A stretch of DNA of 64,000 bases from Ceratothoa steindachneri (Eukaryota; Arthropoda; Malacostraca; Isopoda; Cymothoidae): positions 73,824,245 through 73,888,244 of the forward strand of contig OZ018320.1 in the NCBI GenBank assembly GCA_963969495.1, written 5' to 3'. Positions within the stretch are counted from its first letter, which is position 1. The number at the start of each line of letters is the position of its first letter. Made by a program: the position numbers and the translations under genes. Shown piece after piece: positions 1 to 15,980 of the stretch. The notes beneath the pieces are model-generated. The model saw nothing but the letters and a program-made list of their open reading frames with translations, did no database searches and had not been told where the DNA came from.

Positions 1-629
1 TTATAATCAATCACGCCCTTCTACACCCATTCACACTCATCTACTGCTCCCTGGCTACTCGTAGCAATCTGTCGGGGTCGTTCGTCAGTCGTCCTGTCAG
101 TCTCCTCGTCACTATGGATCATGTCGTCCACAATACTCTTTGCCTTCTTCACCAGCTCCCCCATCTCCCGACAGAACTTTTTCATACTCCCGGTCAGCAC
201 CTTCACTCTTCATACCTCCATTCATCAGCTCCTCAATCACAACTCTCATCAAACTAAAAGCACACTCTTGTGAAACAGACAGATCACTCACATCCCCTAT
301 ATTTTCAGCAGATATAACAGAAACCCCTTCAATTGGTTCCCACCAGAAGCCAGAAAAGTGAGTCACCTCCTCATTCTTCACATCAAACTCACCTCTACCC
401 TTACCATTCGTAAAACCAGAAAAATCAGCCGCATTAGGTTCATTATCTTGTCTACTTACATCAACCAAATCATCCACCTGCTTATGCAACCACTCAAGTT
501 CCCCCATACCAGAACGACTCTGCTCAGACTTACTTTCATTCGTACTTGCATTAATCCTTTAACTCTTCTTTGCACGCTTTCTACTCCTCGAGAAGATCCA
601 TACTATCACACTCCATCTCATCACCATGC

Positions 630-633
<4 letters not shown>
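1..633 (-). pseudogene. Probable C-terminal tail of the G1 Gypsy-like polyprotein
   Basis: Two overlapping minus-strand frames (507-112 and 206-21) encode hydrophilic, acidic protein rich in Glu, Asp and Ser. They look like one coding stretch broken by a frameshift near 195. I recognise no catalytic domain. The minus-strand integrase end of G1 stops at the microsatellite at 3902, and this strand-matched coding segment resumes on the other side of the plus-strand CR1 element. That is why I read it as the displaced 3' part of G1 pol, or a small extra ORF after it. It could instead belong to an unrelated element. No LTR is visible at the left edge. Confidence 0.33.

Positions 634-714
<81 letters not shown>
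634..714. repeat. (AT)n microsatellite
   Basis: About 40 uninterrupted AT units. They sit exactly between the minus-strand coding segment on the left and the plus-strand CR1 element on the right. The Ile-Tyr frames across it are meaningless. Confidence 0.97.
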
Positions 715-1640: not shown

Positions 1641-3394
1641 TAGTAAATCGAGGAAACTTGATTTGAGAAGAGCAAACTTTGCAGGTCTTCGTGCTGGACT
1701 GACTGACGCGAGGCTAGAAGTGTGCGATGCTGTTGAAGACTCGTGGAACAGATTCAAAACCACATTCATGAGTCTTCAATCGCGTTTCATCCCTCTGAAA
1801 TGCCCCGGCGGTCTTCTGTTCAACCAAAGTGGTTTAATCGAAAAATCGGCCAACTGCTTAAAGAGAAGAGAATTGTGTACCAGCAATCGAAAATCTCGGG
1901 TGACTATGAGGAATACCGGAGGCTAGCCAGGACAGTGAAGTCCAGCATAAGGGCGGCTAAGCGGTCTGAGGAACTCCGAGTGGCGAAACTTTGTAGAGAG
2001 AATCCCAAGGAGTTCTTTGGAAAAAATAAACAGCCGTAAACCAATCCGTCGAACGATTGTCCCTTTGAGGAATGAGGAGGGGACATTAAATCACTCAGAT
2101 GAAGAAAATGCTAATCTCCTCAACTTCTCTTCAGTGTTTACTGAAGAGTGTGGTCCCATACCCCAGCCAACGGATGCCTACTCGGGGGAAAAGCTGGAGG
2201 ATATGGAGTTCACCGAAGGAGAAATAAAAAAAAAAGAAGATCAGTGACCTAATAACGAATAAGTCACCTAGCCCGGATGGGTTTCTACCTAAAGTGTTGA
2301 AAGAAGTGCGCGATCAAGTGTCACGACACCTGGGCGCAATCTTCAACATGTCAATCCGGACTGAATGCGTTCCTAGAGACTGGCGTGAAGCGGAGGTGAC
2401 TCCTATCTTCAAGAAAGGAGACCGTAGCCAACCGTCGAACCACCGACCTATCAGTCCGACTCGATAGTCGGTAAACTCATGGAAAGCATCATGGTGGACA
2501 AAATGACGTCGCATTTAGAGTCAAACCTGCTACTTAGGATTTCCCAGCACGGATTCCGAAGGCCACGGTCATGCCTGACGAACTTTGTGGAATTCTTCCA
2601 CTTCGTGTTCAGTGAGCACGATCGGGACAAGGCGGTGGATGTGGTGTACTTAGACTTTCAGAAAGCCTTTGATAAGGTACCACACCGCCGCTTTCTCTGG
2701 AAAGTGCGAGCGCGGGGCATAGACGGAAAAGTACCCGGCTGGATAGAGAACTGGCTAAGTGGCAGACGACAGTGGGTGGTGGTGAATGGACAGGCTTCTG
2801 AGTGGGTGCCCGTTACTAGCGGGGTGCCTCAAGGTTCTGTCCTGGGACCACTACTATTCATCATCTACGTCAACGACATGGACGGTGACATGGGTGCCAA
2901 GATTTCTAAATTTGCCGACGATACCAAGCTTGGTATGAACGTTGCAAATGATGGGAATACTGCCCTTTCAAGAAGACCTTCGGAACATTGGAGTGTGGTC
3001 GGACACGTGGCAAATCCCTTTTAACGTGAACAAATGCAAAGTGATGCATATCGGCCACCGAAATCCACAATCTCAGTATATCCTTAAGGGCACTGCTATT
3101 GAATCCACCGACACTGAGAAGGACTTGGGTGTAACAATCACTAGTGACCTCAAGTTCTCGAAACAGTGCATTGAGGCGGAGAAAAAGGCCCAAAGGATGC
3201 TAGGCTACATAAAGCGCCAGTTTGGATATCAGAACAAGGAGATTGTACTATGTTTGTACAACTCACTTGTCCGACCGCACCTGGAGTATGCCGTACAATT
3301 TTGGAGTCCTTCATTTCGAAAGGACATCGCGAGATTGGAACGCGTGCAAGCCAGGACAACCAAACCGATTTCCTATATCAGGCATAAAAGATAA
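1641..3394 (+). pseudogene. CR1-a ORF2 linker and reverse transcriptase
   Basis: After a basic linker (frame change near 1780) the RT core begins with NKSPSPDGF near 2262 and WREAEVTPIFKKGD near 2386. It continues with SQHGFRRPRSC, VVYLDFQKAFDKVPH (first catalytic Asp), SGVPQGSVLGPLLFIIYVND and KFADDTKLG (catalytic Asp pair, intact) at about 2908-2934. A frameshift just after that moves the thumb region (VNKCKVMHIGHRNPQ, EKDLGVTITSDLKFSKQ) to another frame. Extra breaks lie near 2035, 2247 and 2465. The conserved blocks are typical of the CR1/L2 group and the decay is moderate. Confidence 0.88.

Positions 3395-3832: not shown

Positions 3833-3902
<70 letters not shown>
3833..3902. repeat. (TC)n microsatellite
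   Basis: Thirty-five TC units, uninterrupted. It separates the CR1-a 3' end from minus-strand integrase sequence. The Arg-Glu or Leu-Ser frames through it are artefacts. Confidence 0.97.
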
Positions 3903-3906
<4 letters not shown>

Positions 3907-3907
3907 C

Positions 3908-4785
3908 AGTTCATACACCGGATGGCTCACCAGGTAGTCAAGATGATCTCTCCACCTCCTCAACAGACTCCGATGAGCCCACACTCTCTCAGTCACACCT
4001 TCATTCAAACTGTTCAAACATACGTCACGCCATTCTCCCAGACTCTCACAACTCTATACGGTCCTTCAAACTTTTCACTCATCTTTGACACATTCAATCT
4101 ACCTTTCATTTCTTTTACCTTCAATACCTTTGCACCAATTTCAAACGAACGAAACCTTTCATGTGCTTCACGCGATACACTCTGCTCATTTTCACTCAAA
4201 CGAAACCTATCTTTCACTCACCTTTTAAAATTCATCACAAACTGACACGGGGACACCCTAATTGCAATATGCACCATCGAATTATACGCCCATAACACTC
4301 TACCCAACCATACATCCCAGTCATTCAAAGTCGTACTCATCATTCTCAACATCTCACACAAGGTCCTAATTGTACTTTCAGCCAACCCAATTCGAAGACG
4401 GGACAAACGGAGTCGTTCTTACATGCTCTACACTATTCTCTCTCAACATTCGCTCAAACACTTCCCTCGCAAACTCAGCCCATTATCACTCAGACATCTC
4501 CTAGGATTCCAAACACACATAGGAAAAAAACTGCTCAACCACACGCGCAACAGTCACACTCATTTTATCTCTCACAGGCGTTGCATACACAAACTTGCTT
4601 TTATGAACAACCATACCAACATTCCCAACACTTCTACACGGTAAAGGCACACAATCAATCATTACCAATTCAAACAGTTCTTTCGCATCAACTTTCAACA
4701 TCGGCGGTTTCACTTGTGCATCTTACACCTTTCACACGTAATCGCAACTTCATTCACAACAGTCCTCAGAAATGGGTATAACACA
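3908..4785 (-). pseudogene. G1 integrase
   Basis: From about 4785 leftwards the minus strand encodes an HHCC-type zinc finger end (NEVAITCERCKMHK), then the catalytic core (KVDAKELFELVMIDCVPLP with the first Asp, KSKFVYATPVRDK). It continues with LAESTIRTLCEMLRMM, WDVWLGRVLWAYNSMVH and SPCQFV, and ends with the GPYRVVRVWENGV-type C-terminal domain near 4020. The function was integration of the cDNA into the host genome. At least three frame changes and stops break it. The protein runs into the (TC)n tract at 3902, so its last residues are lost or displaced. Confidence 0.8.
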
Positions 4786-4792
4786 CGCTCCT

Positions 4793-5143
4793 TCATTCAT
4801 CTTTCATAACACATTTCTTATCAGCATCCAAAGACAAATCATTCTTTCTCATAAAGTCCACACCAAGCAAGAAACAACACGGCATTTGCTCATCTTTCAG
4901 AATCACAAAGTCATGCTTCACATTCACACCATTACCCAAACTCACTCTCAGACTAACCTGTTCCCATGCCACTAGCATTCCATTCCCCAATCCACTTATC
5001 CGTAATTTCACAGGCTTCCGTTCACCACATCTAAACTCATCGTACTTACTCAGAATCCTCTCGTTGACTAAGGACACTTGTGCTCCAGTATCAATCAAAC
5101 CACATAAGAACTTTTCACAAACTTTCACTCTCGGTTCCATCAT
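4793..5143 (-). pseudogene. G1 retropepsin 2 (aspartic protease)
   Basis: An open frame of 116 codons contains the full retropepsin signature. The active site is LIDTGAQVSLVN at residues 16-27, followed by the Ala/Gly-rich flap region, and the closing strand is CFLLGVDFM near residue 93. The active-site Asp is intact. In Gypsy elements this enzyme processes the Gag-Pol polyprotein. It is followed within 10 bases by the integrase zinc finger instead of reverse transcriptase, so a deletion of the polymerase probably joined the two. Its first Met may not be the biological start, since it would be part of a polyprotein. Confidence 0.8.
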
Positions 5144-5396
5144 ATCAGGTCCTCCATGTTCTCAATACACAGAAGAAAAATCACACCAACATCAGCACTG
5201 ATATCCACACCGTCATCAACCCCCACATCATCATTCACCACCCACTCATCTTCATCCAGACAATCATTCTTCTCTCTCATATACAAACACTTTTCAATCA
5301 CCCAATTGTAATGCACACCGCTCAAACACTGCAGATGTACCACATTAGTATTCGAACCCTTCACTTTTTCATCCTTGTACACAATCGGCCTCTCAT
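5140..5396 (-). pseudogene. G1 OTU-like domain, C-terminal part with catalytic His
   Basis: The minus-strand frame reads ERPIVYKDEKVKG and then HLQCLSGVHYNWV. This is how OTU cysteine proteases end: a strand starting with a Pro-Ile motif, then Gly-x-His-Tyr-Asn carrying the catalytic His. The rest of the domain lies at 6711-7000, on the other side of the inserted LTR element at 5397-6705. An acidic linker (DEDEWVVNDDVGVDD) follows before retropepsin 2. OTU proteases usually remove ubiquitin, and their presence in some retroelements is known. The assignment rests on motif order only. Confidence 0.55.
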
Positions 5397-5857
5397 TGTA
5401 GGTGTGCGAAGATGTATCAGAGAAAAATTCCTTCCAAGTCGATAATATAAATAGCCCATTAAATTACCAACTCAGAACGGGCTAAGCTGTGGCGTAATGG
5501 CTAAGAGCATCGGCGTTTAAATCTATCGGTACCGAGTTCGAAATTTAATAGTCCACAACTTTTACGAAGAAAACGGAAGTCAAGGAAAACGCTTTAAGAA
5601 CAACTCAACTAGACTCAAGATAAAATGAATCGCCTCCAGAAGAAAACGGAACTCAAGGAAACGTTTGAAGGACCAACTCATCAAGAATCAAGAAGGAATC
5701 ATCAACTCAAGATAATTGGAAGTAAATGGAAGATACATCAGAAAGAAATCGAGGATCAATAACTAACCCAGCCAACAAAGAATATTAAGTCAAGATAAAC
5801 GGAAGACAAAAAGAAGTAAATAGATTCATTAAAAGAGAAAAATGCCCCCCTTCCCCA
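5397..5857 (+). repeat. Left LTR of the TRIM-like element
   Basis: It starts TGTAGGTGTGCGAAG and ends in a C-rich run (ccccccttcccca). It shares with the right copy the block agatgtatcagag, then aatataaatagcccatta, the tRNA-like head, and a long region of aagaaaacggaag motifs. Its A box is at 5490-5500. Its B-box-like gttcgaaat (5535-5543) has one mismatch to the consensus. Confidence 0.72.
5490..5543 (+). promoter_or_regulatory. tRNA-like A and B boxes (possible internal Pol III promoter), left LTR
   Basis: tggcgtaatgg matches the A-box consensus TRGYNNARNNG. gttcgaaat, 45 bases downstream, matches GWTCRANNC except the last base. This spacing is that of a tRNA gene. The sequence does not fold as a complete tRNA cloverleaf by eye, so it is a tRNA-derived or tRNA-mimicking segment rather than a tRNA gene. 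Confidence 0.5.
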
Positions 5858-6149
5858 TAACTGGTGACCCTCAAAAGACCGAATAATCTTCTGATCTTCG
5901 TTTCAACTGCACCTGCTCTCCTACTAAAGTTTAAGAAAAAGTGCTGCTGGGAATCGGAGACCCGGGAAGGAGATTACTCATTGATTAGCGACAAGACTCC
6001 GATCGCTCTCCTCAATCCCACTGAATTAGCTCCACTCATCCCGCCGACTCGGAGGCCGGTGAGGGAGAGCTATTACTCCTCGATTAAGAAATCCAAGACT
6101 AGTCTCTCACCAATCTTCAAATTCGCTCCGCGTTCTAAAAAGGGACCTG

Positions 6150-6705
6150 TGTAGGGGTGCGGAGATGTATCAGAGAAGAATTCCTTCCAAATCGATAATA
6201 TAAATAGCCCATTAAATTACCAACTCAAAACGGGGTAAGCTGTGGCGTAATGGCTAGAGTGACTGGTGTTTAAATCACGAGGTACCGCGTTCGAAACTCA
6301 AAAGTCCACAACCTTTTATGAAGAAATTTCAAGAAGAAAACGGAAGTTAAGGAAAACGCTCGAAGGATAACTCAAGAAGACACAAGATAAATGGATCGCC
6401 TCAAGAAAGAAAAACGGAAGAAAATTACTTCAAGGAGTAACTCATCAAATCATCAAGAATCAAGAAGGAATCATCAACACAAGACAAATGCTATAAAATT
6501 TAAGATGCATCAAGAAAGAAATCGAAGATCAAGCCCTAACCCAACCAACAAGAATACCCTAGTCAAGATAAATGGAAGACAAAAATGTTTGAAGGGGCAA
6601 CTTCAGTCAAGAAGAAGTAAATAGATTCGAATATAAAGTAAAAATCAAGATGAAGAATAATATTGATAAATAAACTGAAAATAAGGAATGCCCCCCTCCC
6701 CCTCC
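6150..6705 (+). repeat. Right LTR of the TRIM-like element
   Basis: A diverged copy of the left LTR, about 95 bases longer because of small insertions in the purine-rich part. It starts TGTAGGGGTGCGGAG and ends in a C-rich run just before the ctcat duplication. The A box tggcgtaatgg is at 6243-6253 and the B box gttcgaaac at 6289-6297, both perfect consensus matches and 46 bases apart. The visible differences from the left copy mean the insertion is not recent. Confidence 0.72.
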
Positions 6706-6710
6706 CTCAT

Positions 6711-7237
6711 ATCATCACTAAAGTGAACACAAACAATCACTCCATACAAACGACTCACTACAATCAACACTGACTGAAACGGCGGGACCCCTGGCATACA
6801 CATCGCTCTCAATTATTTCATAAAGTTCCGCAACCTCGCCATACCAATACTTTCAGGCTTCCTACATACTTCACTCACTGCCCCCTTCCTTAAGTCATCC
6901 ACACTATCTGGCACTCTCACATCTACTTCATCACTCTTCAAATCTTGTAAACTATTCCATACGCTCTCAAACATACGTCCTCCTTCAGGACAATCTTGAA
7001 TTCCAGAAGCTTCGCAACCCCGAAATCCAGATCGCCCTTACTGAGCCCCCCTACCTTTCGTTCAAACAACATTCGATACACATCCTTTATTTTATAGTCA
7101 GTCAAACATTCATCCAATTTCACCATCATTTCCACTTCATTATACGTCCATTCACACATCTTTTCATTTGCAACATTTATCCTGACATCCGTACTATTAT
7201 AGCAATGCCCTCTGGGCCTTCCTATAATAAAAATCAC
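6711..7237 (-). pseudogene. G1 OTU-like domain, N-terminal part, catalytic Cys replaced
   Basis: One minus-strand frame reads CPEGGRMFESVWNSLQDL and continues through RKGAVSEVCRKPESIGMARLRNFM to SRLYGVIVCVHFSDDM near 6715. This order parallels OTU domains: Asp/Gly-Gly-Cys with an aromatic residue and a helix, a variable helical part, then a buried Leu-Tyr-x-x-Ile-x-Val strand. The position expected to be the catalytic Cys is Arg (codon CGT, one change from TGT), so the copy would be inactive. A second frame (7237-6938) encodes a preceding linker. An in-frame stop follows RLRNFMK. Confidence 0.5.
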
Positions 7238-7240
7238 CTG

Positions 7241-7247
7241 GGAAACT

Positions 7248-7340
<93 letters not shown>
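7241..7340. repeat. (AT)n microsatellite
   Basis: Almost pure AT dinucleotide repeat inside the G1 element, at the left end of a non-coding AT-rich segment. Confidence 0.95.
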
Positions 7341-7343
<3 letters not shown>

Positions 7344-7790
7344 TTATTATGTATAAAATTACTTTATAGTATATGGTTATTAATGAGATTTATTTTTGGT
7401 TGATAAATCAGCCTAAATAGCGTTTCAAAAACCATTACCATAAATTTGTTTGATGAAAGTTAGTCGTCTGCTAGTTTTTAGGCCTAAGAGTAAAGCGAAA
7501 TAAATTTGAACTTCTGAACTAGGTTTTAAAAAAAACAATTAAACAAATATAAATATATTCATAGAAACAACGAATGCACAATGAGATAAGTTGCATTAGG
7601 TATACAATGTAAGATATGGTAAAATAAAATTTACAGTAACAAGATGTGAAGTGAAATGAGGTAAGTGAAATAAATATGAAATAATATGGTGACTACGATG
7701 GACTGTGAATTAGGGGCTGCAATATGAGAAGTAAATATAATTAGAAACTACTCTCTTGTGGCCATTTGCAGAGAATTGTGAGAGGATGTG
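7341..7790. other. AT-rich non-coding segment inside G1
   Basis: I see no reading frame, RNA gene or clear repeat boundary. It separates the end of retropepsin 1 from the OTU-like region and is probably an insertion of an unknown AT-rich element. Confidence 0.4.
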
Positions 7791-7794
7791 GAAT

Positions 7795-8560
7795 TAACTA
7801 AGTATGATTCCTATCTCACTGACAGTGGAGAGGTGACCCAGTACATCTCCGCATTGGATCCCCCTCACCTGCCCTTTCACCCTGGGGTCCACTTGCACAG
7901 ATACAAAAGGATCATTCATTCTCATCAAGCCATCAAACACACAAGCAACACGCCTTACCTTATAACACGCATCCTTTCCAAATCTAATATCACAGTGTTC
8001 TCACCTACATTTAACTCACATCCTTACTCCAACTGACTCCAACAGATACCTTTTCACCCTTCACAAGCCTTATACTCTCCATAGCAGTCACCTCAATACC
8101 ACTAAACACACTCCTCAAAACACTACCATCTTCCCCTACATACAACCTATACACCCCATTTTTACCAATCTTTCTCTCAATCTGATCACTCGCAGGATTC
8201 AGAACCATACGGTTCACTATGATAAAATCATACCCCAAAATCCCACCCTTTTCACTACTTATCTTATCAATCACAGATAATTCACACTCATTCATCAACA
8301 TACCATGCATTCGAACAGCTGACCTTATCATTCCAATCACAGGTACTTTCATACCACCAATTACTACCAAACTACCTTTACACTCTGACAGGAGTGCTTT
8401 ATCAGTCAGCTTGTCATACATGTCCTTATATACCAAGCTCGTCTTTCACCCAGAATCTATCAAAGTCAAACACTCAATCCCGTTCAATTCAATATTCACA
8501 CTCAGACACTCATACTTCCTACCAGACAGCACTTTCACACTAGGCAGACTTACTAACACA
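7795..8560 (-). pseudogene. G1 retropepsin 1 and following linker
   Basis: On the minus strand the frame reads ECLTLIDSG near 8460, immediately followed by a stop codon, then TSLVYKDMYDKL. About 70 residues later comes GGILGYDFII near 8220. LIDSG and ILGYDF are the two hallmark strands of a retropepsin fold, with Asp-Ser-Gly instead of Asp-Thr-Gly at the active site. A beta-rich linker follows (RLVKGEKVSVGVSW near 8050). It lies between gag and the OTU-like domain, and a second, unrelated-looking retropepsin lies further on. Both being in one element is unusual. Confidence 0.62.
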
Positions 8561-8599
8561 TTACTCGCACGCATGCACCCAGAGGATACTTCACCAAGT

Positions 8600-9701
8600 A
8601 CCCTCTTACAATTTAGTTTCCCGATTCAGACTTTCCATTCACACCTTGCGCTCTCGATCAAATCCAAGACTTTTCACTTGAATGATGTCCTTCCATCGCA
8701 CAATAGCTACATACATTTATCTGGTCACGACAAATCCTCGCATAATGACCATCCTTTCCGCAATTACCACAAGCATAGTTCATACCCCCTCCCCCCCCAA
8801 CATTCATCAAATCGCCCGTCTTTCTGCAGTTCCAACACATCCTCACACACCAACCGTTCACTTATCAGTCTCATCCTCTCCTTTCTCTCCCCATTCAACC
8901 ATTCATTCACCTTTCGCGGGATCGTGTCCAGGAACTTCATCACAGTTGTTTATACTCATTCACTCCATCATCACCATACCTCTTTCTCGCCATACTCTCA
9001 AGCCTATGTGCATACATGTTCACCCCCTTCGTTCTTCCTCCCCATAAGAGCTTTCTCAAATTCATTCTTCTTTTATACTTCACACTTTCTTTGATTCGTT
9101 TCCCCTGCCCAATCAGTCTCTCCTTCACCACCTCATACCTCGGTTCACCCACACTCGTTATCAGTCGGAAGAATTCTAATACTTTTCCATCTAAACACTT
9201 CCCTAAAACATTCATCCAGTGCCCCTCATTCTCCAGGTACTCTAGCTTGCAAAAACGAGTGCACACTCATCCCTCTCACCTTTCCCTCTGACCCAGTCTT
9301 CCTTCCTCTCTTGCGTTCCATTCTCTTCCATTCTCCGTCCTTCCTATCCCTCGCAATCATCCTGTCATCTCTAGACTCGCACACACTCCCATTGATCCCA
9401 TTAGTCTTATCCCATTCGGTCGGAGCAGGGGTCACGGTCGAGGGTCATGGGGCCAGTCCTGACACCTTCATCATGTCATAAAGGTCCTGCATCCTTTGGT
9501 CGACCTGCTTCTGTCTCTCGACCATTTATTTCTTCATCCTGTCGATCTTCTCATCCATACTCATCATATCACTCCTCAATCCCTATCACTCCTCAATCCC
9601 TCAATCACACTCCTCAACATTGTACATTCTTCCTTTTTCTACCTCAACTCCCTCGTCAGGTTCACAATCTCATCATGGAGGCCATGTTCCACAGAAGCCA
9701 T
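8600..9701 (-). pseudogene. G1 Gag with zinc knuckles
   Basis: The start is the ATG whose complement lies at 9699-9701, giving MASVEHGLHDEIVNLTRELR and a coiled-coil-like N-terminus with two stops. The capsid-like part (LEYLENEGHWMNVLGKC, KVLEFFRLIT) is open from 9266 to 8940. Near 8830-8660 are zinc knuckles: CWNCRKTGD, then CGNCGKDGHYARIC (perfect CX2CX4HX4C), then CSYCAMEGHHSSEK. Gag would package element RNA. The distance from the primer-binding site (about 140 bases) is normal. Stops and frame changes inactivate it. Confidence 0.75.
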
Positions 9702-9840
9702 CCCCCCAGGTTAGTAATAAAGGACAGAAAAAAGGGAAAAAAACAATCAAACTACTCGTGCAGCCTAACCCCTTTACTACGTCCAATCCGATTACGGACT
9801 GCAATCCAATCTTGTCACGCTCCCGGTTTCGAGATCTCAT

Positions 9841-9858
9841 GTCCCTGTTCGGGCGCCA
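9841..9858 (-). other. Primer-binding site complementary to tRNA-Lys
   Basis: The plus strand reads gtccctgttcgggcgcca; its complement starts TGGCGCC, directly inside the LTR edge. This 18-mer is the complement of the 3' end of the tRNA-Lys used as primer by many LTR elements. Two bases separate it from the LTR end (CCCATTACA on the minus strand). It fixes the orientation of G1 as minus. Confidence 0.85.
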
Positions 9859-9860
9859 AA

Positions 9861-11228: not shown

Positions 11229-12388
11229 TTACACCAAATTTGAGGTGGTACCAGTAAAAGCTTGAAAATTGGGAAAGGAAAGTTGAGCGGCATGATTAAC
11301 CGGAGGGTGAAAGATTTGAGAATGCATAGATGCGTGGTAAAAGCTGCAAGGCTGTACACAGCGCACAGCGTTGCTACCATAACTAGCATGATGCCAGCAG
11401 TAACCATCAGGATTATCAGTATAGGTGGAATTTGACGAGGGTTGAAAATGAACCTGCATTGCTTCACCTCTTGTGCTGGAGTTCCCTCGTTGGTTGTGTC
11501 TTGAACCGGAGGACGAACGGCGTCTGAATCCACTGTCCTGCCCGCGACTGTTCTCTCGCTGCAAACCCTTTTGCAACTTAAGGGCACGAATATCCTCCTC
11601 AATCCTCTCCAAGACAGAAGCAAGATCCCGAGCTTCGGAGGGTGCGCCGCGTGGTAGTTCTGCCTGGTTGTAAGGAGATCCGCCCCATGTCCTAACCTGT
11701 GAAATATACATTTTTACATTTGGGTCACAATGTGTATTATTTGTATTATCATTCACGTTACCACAGCTGACGTATAAGTTGTTGAAAATCTCATCGGCAG
11801 CCTTTGCCATGTCCTCCACGTTAGCGGGTGACGCCATTAATATTAGTGGCCTAGTTTGCTCCGGGACCCCACGCATAAAGATTTCAGTTAGCAAAGGATC
11901 TAACTGCTCAAACTGTGCACCCTTAGCGTGAGCTAAGCTCTTGAGGTGTTCCATGAAAAGCGAGGGACGCCTAGCACCCATCTCCTGTGTGTTGAGGAGA
12001 ATACGCAGGTCCCGATTTTCGCCCCCCCCCCAAAAAAAAAATAAATTGCTGCCCTCGAGCATAATATGCTTAAAAATAGAAAAGATACTTAGGGGCAACT
12101 TCTGGATGATGCAGAACGTTTTATGTTGATCGGGGATGGCGTGGTTGTCCATGATGAAGTCGGCCATTTCCAACCATGCAATGGGGTTCTCTGTATCGAA
12201 GGTTGGGAGAAGAATGTAAACGGAGGAAAGAGGGCAGGCCGCTGATGAGTGAAGGATTGCTGCGGGAGGATGCTCGAATGGGAGCCACTCATGGAGGAAA
12301 ATATGGCGGTAGTGATGCCTAGACAAGCCATTGAGGTAGTGACTGAGGTGGACATCAGCGCAGTGGTTGAGCTCATGTTAACCATCAC
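11229..12388 (-). pseudogene. G2 Gag
   Basis: The frame 12326-11229 encodes 365 residues with ILLPTFDTENPIAWLEMAD, the start of the arthropod Gypsy Gag capsid domain (Pro-x-Phe followed by a Trp about seven residues later). It continues through LNTQEMGARRPSLFMEHLKS, GVPEQTRPLILMA and VEDMAKAADEIF. The C-terminal part is Arg/Ser-rich (nucleic-acid binding). A start Met lies at 12388 in another frame, so a frameshift near 12230 separates the N-terminus. A C- and A-rich homopolymer at 12026-12043 also disturbs the domain (the LFFFWGGG stretch). Confidence 0.75.
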
Positions 12389-14010: not shown

Positions 14011-14777
14011 TGGGGAAATTTATATACAAACTTGTAGGGGTGAAACCACTACACGGGCACCGAACCTGCACTCTAGCCTCAATCGTTCCAACCCGCTTCC
14101 TACACTAAGTCGGACGTGACAAATCGTGGGAGAAATGAAACGGATTGTATGTACAGTCCTTTTTATACACAAGTATGGATAATTTAAGTTACTATACAAA
14201 CACATTATAAATATATACAAAACAAGAGATAAATGAACAAATAAAAAACAATATACAATCAAATTCAAAGAGGCCTAAAAAACATACAATCAAAATTAAG
14301 CATACAAAAAATAAGACCTTCCGCTTACGTGTTTTTCTCTGGGGAAAGTCCTGCTGGCTGCCACTTGTGTTGGCACGATTGTTGCGTACGTCTTTTAAAG
14401 GCTGGCGCCTCCGAGCTCGATATAATATAAAGCGATCTTGTCGCGGTATTGAGGCTATATATAAAACTCCTGTCTAACCAATCATTAACCAGTCAAGGAT
14501 GATGGCAATTTCATTTTTTTTAATACCAGCACTGTTTACAAAAGGAAAGAATAGATTTTACAAATATTTACCAATAATAACAAAGTGGCTTTTTGTTTTA
14601 AATACAACGATATATAGGAAATTAGGTCAATCTTTACAGAATATGGCTCCAGGAAAGAGAAAAAATACATTTTAAACATATCATGAAATCAATTTTATAT
14701 TTAGATATAAAACATCTCCCATTCACACACACATTCTTAAAGAGGGAGAGAGAGGGTATTGGAAAAAGGGTGCGAGA
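14007..14777. other. Unassigned AT-rich DNA
   Basis: No convincing coding region, RNA gene or known repeat boundary on either strand. A GC-richer patch at 14330-14420 has no recognisable function. Confidence 0.5.
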
Positions 14778-15980
14778 ATGACCCTACAAACACTCTCACA
14801 TTCGCTCCACCAGATGGTGAGGTCACAGTGGAGGGACGTTATCAGTGGCGTGCCTCAGGGATCCGTTATAGGCCCTTTATTATTCATAGTTTATATAAAT
14901 GATCTTGGGGAGGCTGTAAATAGCAAATTGTCAATTTTTACTGATGTCACTAAATTGGCAGCTGTAGTCAAAGAAGTTGAGGGTAGCTTTAAAGTGAAGA
15001 GGGACTTAAATAAGTTATTAGCTTGGGCTCAGAAGTGGCAGATGACTTTTAAAGTTAAAAAATGCAAAGTTATTATCAGGGGAAACGATAATAGAGAATT
15101 TAGCTATGAAATGGATGGGCATTGACTGAATTCAGTTGAGAATGAGAAGGACTTAGGTGTAGTAGTAGATAGGTACCAATGTTTTCAAAAAATAACGAAA
15201 ATAGGATGTTAGGGTACATTAATAGGAATGTTAGCTACAAGAGTAAAGAGGTTATCCTTAAACTCTACAACTCGTATGTTGTGCAACATTTACAGTACTG
15301 TATACAAGCATGGCCACCACATTTAAGACATGACAACAACCTGCTAGAGTCAGTACAAATGAGGGAAACAAAAATAATACCTTCCCTGAAGCACATTGAA
15401 TATGAAAATAGACTGAGGGTACTAAATATGTTCTCATTTGAGAGAAGATGTGTGAGGGAAGATATGATTGAGCTTTCTAAAATCTGTTGTGCGATGGATA
15501 AGTTTGATTTTAGCAAGTTATTTGAGTTGGAAGGTAGTAATAGGACTAGGGGTTCACAACTTAAAAATTAAAAAAAAAAAGGTGCAGGTTGCATGTTAGA
15601 AAATATATTTTTCAACAATAAAGTGGTAGATTACTGGAATAGTTTGCCATCTGAGACGGTAGACAGTCCAAACTTGAGTGTTTTTAAACGCAGATTAGAT
15701 GATTATATGGGGAGGGAGGGTTAACTTTGGGTGTATTTTGGACTCATTCCCTGTGGATGCAGTTTCTTATTATTGTATATTATGATTGATTTGGATTTTG
15801 GCTCTCTTGATGATGATGCCTTTTTTTTGACACATTCCTGTGTATGATTTTATTTGTATATTGTAGATACATGATCTGACACAATCTTATGGATGCATTT
15901 TGTGGGTGAGGCTTGACAGATGCGGATGACCTTTGATAGGCCCTTGTGGCTTTTTTCATCCGTGAAATTATGTTATGTTA
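14778..15980 (+). mobile_element. 5'-truncated CR1-like LINE (CR1-b)
   Basis: Only the last third of ORF2 is present. It starts just before VISGVPQGSVIGPLLFIVYIND (RT). The motif that should be Phe-Ala-Asp-Asp reads FTDV, so both the Ala and the second catalytic Asp are changed. The thumb and C-terminal domain follow: EKDLGVVVDR, NRMLGYINRNVSYKSKEVIL, LERR-like FERRCVREDMIELSKI, FKRRLDDYM. Stops and frame changes lie at 15124, 15175 and 15570. A short 3' UTR ends near 15980 with ttatgttatgtta, the kind of short tandem tail CR1 elements leave. It is a different subfamily from CR1-a. Confidence 0.82.

What the first reader, a model, noticed from the sequence alone, without database searches (positions are those of the whole stretch)
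4793..9701. Gypsy-like element with an OTU-like protease domain and two retropepsins
Reading G1 on the minus strand gives gag, a retropepsin-like domain (LIDSG ... ILGYDF), an OTU-like domain (CPEGGRMF ... GVHYNWV), a second retropepsin (LIDTGAQVS ... LLGVDFM) and integrase. Seen directly: the motifs and their order. Known: OTU proteases usually act on ubiquitin and have been found in some transposons and viruses. Inference: a lineage of animal LTR elements carried a deubiquitinase-like enzyme and two aspartic proteases in one polyprotein. This is the best candidate in the window for an undescribed system.
Basis: partly seen in the sequence, partly recalled or inferred. Interest (0 to 1): 0.75.

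Follow-up and report, generated by a model that had tools for sequence, protein, structure and literature searches.

The report
Retrotransposon carrying pseudo-deubiquitinase and extra protease
The broken piece in the window belongs to an abundant jumping-gene family of an animal genome whose long protein carries, besides the usual enzymes, a domain folded like a ubiquitin-cutting enzyme but without its usual cutting residue, followed by a second virus-type protease, an arrangement I did not find described.

The parts
14054..14812 (-). 5' LTR of the OTU element (diverged)
   Evidence: Match to the LTR of an intact copy and 86-88% identity in two main pieces to the 3' LTR just outside the window in L065
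9840..9861 (-). primer binding site, TTTGGCGCCCGAACAGGGAC; now separated from the LTR by the insert 14053-9861
   Evidence: Read directly; the long copies have TTTGGCGCCCGAATAGGGACGT right after the LTR in 10 of 10
8625..9860 (-). leader and gag (broken)
   Evidence: 73-91% DNA identity to leader/gag of L032; gag frame of 575-583 aa in seven of ten long copies; CCHC zinc knuckles in L029
8616..8622 (-). slippery heptamer GGGAAAC at the gag/pol overlap
   Evidence: Found here and in 9 of 10 long copies; in 8 of 10 it ends directly before the stop of the gag frame
7962..8622 (-). PR1, first retropepsin-type domain (LIDSG ... ILGYDF); stop right after LIDSG here
   Evidence: 88.5% DNA identity to L032; homologue in L029 passes Pfam Asp_protease 33.2 vs 26 bits
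7807..7961 (-). pre-RT linker, first piece
6977..7200 (-). pre-RT linker, second piece; ends at the junction where RT-RNase H (about 1.4 kb in intact copies) is missing; source of the false 'CPEGG'
6712..6973 (-). OTU-fold domain, N-terminal part (MFESVWNSLQDL ... VDDLRK ...)
   Evidence: 89.7% DNA identity to L032
5163..5395 (-). OTU-fold domain, C-terminal part (ERPIVYKDEK ... LSGVHYNWV)
   Evidence: 91.5% DNA identity to L032
4794..5161 (-). PR2, second retropepsin (LIDTGAQVSLV ... LLGVDFM)
   Evidence: Pfam RVP 21.3 bits vs cut-off 20.7; 90.8% DNA identity to L032
4718..4799 (-). remnant of the integrase zinc-binding region (most of it deleted)
   Evidence: the region in L029 hits Integrase_H2C2 1.7e-9
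4171..4716 (-). integrase core (broken)
   Evidence: 87.6% DNA identity to L032; homologue in L029 hits rve 9.3e-14
3894..4170 (-). C-terminal part of ORF2, first piece
7..635 (-). C-terminal part of ORF2, second piece, continuing towards the window's edge

Best explanation
It is a Ty3/Gypsy-type LTR retrotransposon lineage with a fixed extra cassette, an OTU-fold domain plus a second retropepsin (PR2), between RNase H and integrase. Gag is made from ORF1 and Pol by -1 frameshifting at GGGAAAC (site shown, shift inferred). PR1, at the usual place before RT, is taken as the maturation protease (inferred from place and motif). The OTU domain has kept its fold, the cleft His and purifying selection, but its Cys nucleophile is Ser and the triad Asp is mostly gone. 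I think it no longer cuts ubiquitin but binds ubiquitin or a ubiquitinated partner, and so protects, places or gates the neighbouring PR2 and integrase (inferred). PR2 is probably an active aspartic protease with its own cleavage task (motifs and fold shown, activity inferred).
Against: No assay. Ubiquitin binding is not shown; the model gives a fold, not a ligand. The conserved His beside a conserved Ser would also fit a working Ser-His site. PR2 evolves faster than the rest (dN/dS 0.54), and in one of the three other copies tested (L013) it fell below the RVP cut-off. Both PR1 and PR2 find DDI1 first, so the DDI1 likeness is not special to PR2. Two of 20 RT-picked copies carry neither OTU nor PR2 where expected.
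Confidence: 0.45

Rival explanations
1. The OTU domain is a structural insert or spacer between RNase H and integrase with no ubiquitin role; selection keeps only its fold.
For: Cys and, in nearly all members, the triad Asp are lost; Pfam does not recognise it in the copies tested.
Against: The Ser and the His loop (HLQ...HYN) are among the best-kept places across relatives, as expected if the cleft is used rather than only the fold.
Confidence: 0.3
2. It is an active protease with a serine nucleophile (Ser-His), removing ubiquitin or cutting another bond.
For: Ser and His conserved together in relatives down to 34% identity; purifying selection.
Against: The residue at -3 (triad Asp) is Gly, Ser, Val or Ala, and Asp only in L034 among those read. 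PMC4654579 (passages) states that serine-type deubiquitinases have not been described and found fly CG3251 and Otu inactive.
Confidence: 0.15
3. OTU and PR2 work as one unit, a ubiquitin-directed aspartic protease comparable to DDI1, separate from PR1.
For: The two domains are adjacent in 19 of 19 loci, 10 of 10 long copies and the ten relatives that reach OTU; PR2's closest solved structures are DDI1 proteases.
Against: PR1 also finds DDI1 first. A single ordinary Gypsy protease sequence found only weak HIV-2/SIV matches, but one sequence against a profile is not an equal control. Ubiquitin dependence of DDI1 is recalled.
Confidence: 0.08
4. The window shows two different elements side by side, or chance motifs.
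For: The window copy is heavily broken and carries inserts, among them a LINE-type RT and repeats that look like another element's LTRs.
Against: One uninterrupted frame of 1,782-1,783 aa spans PR1 to integrase in four of the ten long copies (L029-L032); two database proteins run from PR1 through RT, RH, OTU and PR2 into the integrase zinc-binding part in one chain (P0012, P0013).
Confidence: 0.02

Closest known systems
Ty3/Gypsy LTR retrotransposons (Metaviridae)
   Same: LTRs, PBS after the 5' LTR, gag, PR1-RT-RNase H-integrase order, H2C2 and rve integrase
   Different: About 280-300 extra residues (OTU and PR2) between RNase H and integrase: P0020-P0023, ordinary Gypsy proteins, have about 145-166 aa between my RT-RH and integrase markers against about 445-453 in P0006, P0012 and P0013 (my estimate from coordinates)
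Ginger1 DNA transposons (PMC2836005, passages)
   Same: Gypsy-like integrase in one protein with an OTU domain
   Different: Cut-and-paste DNA transposon; OTU at the C-terminus, described there as an OTU cysteine protease domain
Helitrons/Helentrons with OTU
   Same: A mobile element carrying OTU (PMC2836005 passages); elements that I take for Helitrons are also in this genome (named by eye, from memory)
   Different: Rolling-circle elements; in those read here GDGNCLF is mostly intact and Pfam OTU hits; no LTR, RT or retropepsin expected (recalled)
Fly Otu and CG3251 (PMC4654579, passages)
   Same: OTU domain with Ser in place of Cys
   Different: Host proteins that keep the triad Asp and His; here the Asp is mostly lost as well
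DDI1/DDI2 retroviral-type protease
   Same: Best structure match of PR2 and best profile match of PR2 and PR1
   Different: Host protein, not part of a retroelement polyprotein; its ubiquitin dependence is recalled, not from a call

Membership tests
Ty3/Gypsy LTR retrotransposon | LTR pair, PBS next to the 5' LTR, short target site duplication | tested here: met
   LTR pairs found in 10 of 10 long copies (L038 only in pieces); PBS in 10 of 10; identical 4-bp flanks directly visible in 5 of 10 (L030, L031, L032, L036, L037)
Ty3/Gypsy LTR retrotransposon | Order PR, RT, RNase H, integrase | tested here: met
   with OTU and PR2 added between RNase H and integrase
OTU protease family | OTU fold | tested here: met
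   (predicted structure of a relative, P0013)
OTU protease family | Pfam OTU profile above cut-off | tested here: not met
   no hit for four element copies up to E 10; 1 of 10 relatives at E 0.12
OTU protease family | Catalytic Cys | tested here: not met
   Ser in 26 of 27 readable copies, Phe in one, 2 of 29 unreadable; Ser in 7 of 7 relatives that reach it
OTU protease family | Triad Asp three residues before the Cys | tested here: not met
   Gly, Ser, Val or Ala; Asp in one copy, L034; the place of the triad Asp follows PMC4654579 (D37 and S40 of CG3251)
OTU protease family | Catalytic His | tested here: met
   21 of 22 readable copies; 10 of 10 relatives
OTU protease family | Cleavage or binding of ubiquitin | not testable with these tools
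   needs an assay
Retropepsin (PR2) | D-T/S-G motif, later I/L-G motif, retropepsin fold | tested here: met
   RVP above cut-off in the window, L024 and L023, below it in L013 (12.1 bits); motif in 12 relatives; fold
Retropepsin (PR1) | D-T/S-G motif and Pfam aspartyl protease profile above cut-off | tested here: met
   L029 and L030; motif in four sequences; PR1 was not folded
Helitron or Ginger1 | Element without RT and LTRs | tested here: not met
   RT, RNase H, LTRs and PBS present

The most novel reading that the evidence does not exclude
An old lineage of animal LTR elements carries a second, ubiquitin-directed protein-processing unit: a serine-type OTU domain (active Ser-His site, or a ubiquitin reader) coupled to its own retropepsin, distinct from the maturation protease. 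That would be the first serine-nucleophile OTU enzyme, or the first ubiquitin-gated retroelement protease, that I know of.
Probability: 0.15. Interest if true: 0.87.

Novelty: new variant of a known kind. Interest (0 to 1): 0.64.

Why it matters
LTR retrotransposons normally encode one protease (established knowledge). A lineage that has kept, under purifying selection, an OTU-fold domain without the usual nucleophile and a second protease, with at least six copies whose LTR pairs are still over 98% identical, points to a ubiquitin-linked step in the life of a retroelement. It offers a natural test of what dead or serine-type OTU domains do, and of whether retropepsins can be steered by ubiquitin as in DDI1.

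Tried and rejected
Pfam OTU search of the whole genome gave 42 matches. The 14 that I read (8; 6 of 16 further loci, the other 10 not matching my motif pattern) are of a type that I take for Helitron by eye, mostly with intact GDGNCLF; so that search does not see this family. The protein database search with the OTU part of a 670-aa piece gave nothing among 82 candidates; a search with the Helitron-type OTU gave nothing among 68. Viral contigs: three scans, no relative. Profile comparison of the element's OTU with the Helitron-type OTU was weak (local: probability 7.7%, P 0.0045, in the right register; global: nothing), and the single-family profile A1 found no OTU in the PDB. In one search the OTU query also gave weak matches in the ordinary Gypsy proteins P0020-P0023 (best E 4e-4 in that small set, P0023, 23% identity, query residues 2-114); they start in the RNase H tail that I had left in the query, so I do not count them as OTU, but did not test this further. 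The tree of PR1, PR2 and outgroup proteases could not say whether PR1 and PR2 arose by duplication. RNA folding downstream of the slippery site was no better than shuffles in three copies. The 50 listed rows of the viral structure library name no retro-element (many rows unnamed, so inconclusive). A DDI1-like special role for PR2 was set back by PR1 giving the same best hit. Literature: searches listed no paper that I could recognise as describing an LTR element with OTU or with two proteases; I judged by listings, and looked at passages only in PMC2836005, PMC4654579, PMC11943222 and PMC7928374. The library is open-access only and Repbase is not in it.
Full report
WHAT WAS CLAIMED.

WHAT IS IN THE WINDOW. 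The window is part of a 3.93-Gb assembly (G000:C4:73824245-73888244). Piece by piece against one intact copy (L032), the window copy aligns as follows (LTR limits): 5' LTR 14812-14054; leader and gag 9860-8625; PR1 8622-7962; linker 7961-7807 and 7200-6977; OTU 6973-6712 and 5395-5163; PR2 5161-4794; zinc-binding remnant 4799-4718; integrase 4716-4171; C-terminal part 4170-3894 and 635-7. The RT and RNase H pieces found no match in the window. The 3' LTR lies just outside (L065; 86-88% identical to the 5' LTR in two main pieces), so this is an old copy. About 1.4 kb with RT and RNase H is missing between the linker and OTU.

GENOME COPIES. A search with the window's OTU piece gave 8,431 first-look candidates; the best 150 were scored and all matched, many in long open frames up to 1,783 aa. 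An RT query gave 32,373 first-look candidates; the 150 scored all had E 1.3e-84 or better. First-look counts are not confirmed copy numbers. In 19 of 19 other loci brought in by the first search PR2 follows OTU directly, and integrase follows in 18 of 19. In 10 of 10 copies chosen for long open frames the order is gag, PR1, linker, OTU, PR2, IN, with a gap of RT-RH length before OTU. Pfam finds RT (4.8e-29) and RNase H (1.5e-26) in that gap in L024, the copy tested, and RT-picked copies include L029 and L036. Because these copies were found through OTU, I also took 20 of the 150 RT-picked copies at roughly even steps: 18 of 20 carry OTU sequence at the expected place (partly broken in several), 15 of 20 carry PR2, 2 of 20 (L074, L076) carry neither.

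ANATOMY OF INTACT COPIES. The gag frame is 575-583 aa in seven of ten long copies, split in two in L032 and L036, and run together with the start of Pol in L035 (780 aa); L029's carries CCHC knuckles. Pol is one frame of 1,782-1,783 aa in four of ten, shorter in the other six. Where both frames are whole they overlap by about 10 bases. GGGAAAC lies there in 9 of 10 copies (not L037) and in the window at 8622; in 8 of 10 it ends directly before the stop of the gag frame (in L035 the frame is shifted), the classical -1 frameshift form (recalled). Folding downstream was not better than shuffles. Where the alignments reach the ends, LTRs start TGTGG and end in CA; pairs are 98.4-99.9% identical in six copies (L030, L031, L032, L034, L036, L037), 92-95.5% counting gaps in three (L029, L033, L035), and only in pieces in L038. 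The PBS follows in 10 of 10; identical 4-bp flanks show directly in 5 of 10. The family has therefore moved recently.

THE TWO PROTEASES. PR1 passes Pfam cut-offs in L029 (Asp_protease 33.2 vs 26; Asp_protease_2 30.3 vs 24.3) and in L030. PR2 passes RVP in the window (21.3), L024 (22.3) and L023 (25.2) against 20.7, but not in L013 (12.1). PR2 of 12 relatives keeps D-T/S-G and the later glycine; its model (pLDDT 87.4) matches DDI1 retroviral-type proteases first, then retroviral proteases. By sequence, profiles of both PR2 and PR1 find DDI1 first; one ordinary Gypsy protease found only weak HIV-2/SIV matches, which is a weaker kind of query. The tree keeps PR1 of three elements as one clade but cannot root PR1 against PR2. 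PR1 was not folded.

SELECTION. Pooled over all pairs of the ten long copies, dN/dS is 0.16 PR1, 0.21 RT, 0.17 RH, 0.18 OTU, 0.54 PR2, 0.31 IN and 0.32 C-terminal part. Pairs are not independent and copies were chosen for open frames, which lowers dN/dS; the comparison between domains is the useful part, and by it OTU is as constrained as RT.

HOW IT MAY WORK. Shown: fixed place between RNase H and integrase, OTU fold, loss of Cys and mostly of Asp, retained His, constraint, two retropepsins with their motifs. Inferred: PR1 matures Gag-Pol; the OTU domain binds rather than cuts ubiquitin or a ubiquitinated partner; PR2 has a task of its own near integrase. Fly OTU proteins with Ser were inactive in vitro (PMC4654579, passages only). 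That supports a non-catalytic role but does not prove it here.

NOVELTY. OTU domains are known in Ginger1 and Helitron elements (PMC2836005, passages); PMC4067079 on Helentrons holds the phrase 'OTU-like cysteine protease' (search listing only). Ten literature searches listed nothing that I could recognise as an LTR element with OTU or with two retropepsins. The library lacks most subscription papers, and Repbase was not searchable, so entries may exist. I rate it a new variant of a known kind.

Noticed in passing
window 14053-9861: An insert between the 5' LTR and the PBS of the OTU element; it holds a pair of direct repeats (13089-12723 and 10241-9873, 89% identical) that look like LTRs of another element, with a gag-like frame 11229-12377 between them (no Pfam hit; 'gag-like' is by eye).
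   Followed up: partly
window 2428-3024: A LINE-type reverse transcriptase on the plus strand (RVT_1 6.7e-23; 'LINE-type' is by eye) inside the insert 3893-636 of the element's C-terminal part.
   Followed up: partly
window 6711-5396: The insert that splits the OTU coding sequence contains two copies of a stretch of about 439 bases, 79.5% identical (5397-5812 and 6150-6585).
   Followed up: no
genome-wide, L001-L008 and L049-L060: A family that I take for Helitron by eye, with an OTU domain: 42 Pfam OTU matches in the genome, 14 of them read, mostly GDGNCLF; one copy (L052) reads GGGNSLF, also with Ser at the Cys place.
   Followed up: partly
structure library BFVD: Three baculovirus VP80/P87 capsid proteins are among the viral structure matches of the OTU model (E 5.6e-5 to 8.6e-4).
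   Followed up: no
L029 6300-7350: The last 350 residues of Pol, after the integrase core, match no Pfam family but are under constraint (dN/dS 0.32).
   Followed up: no
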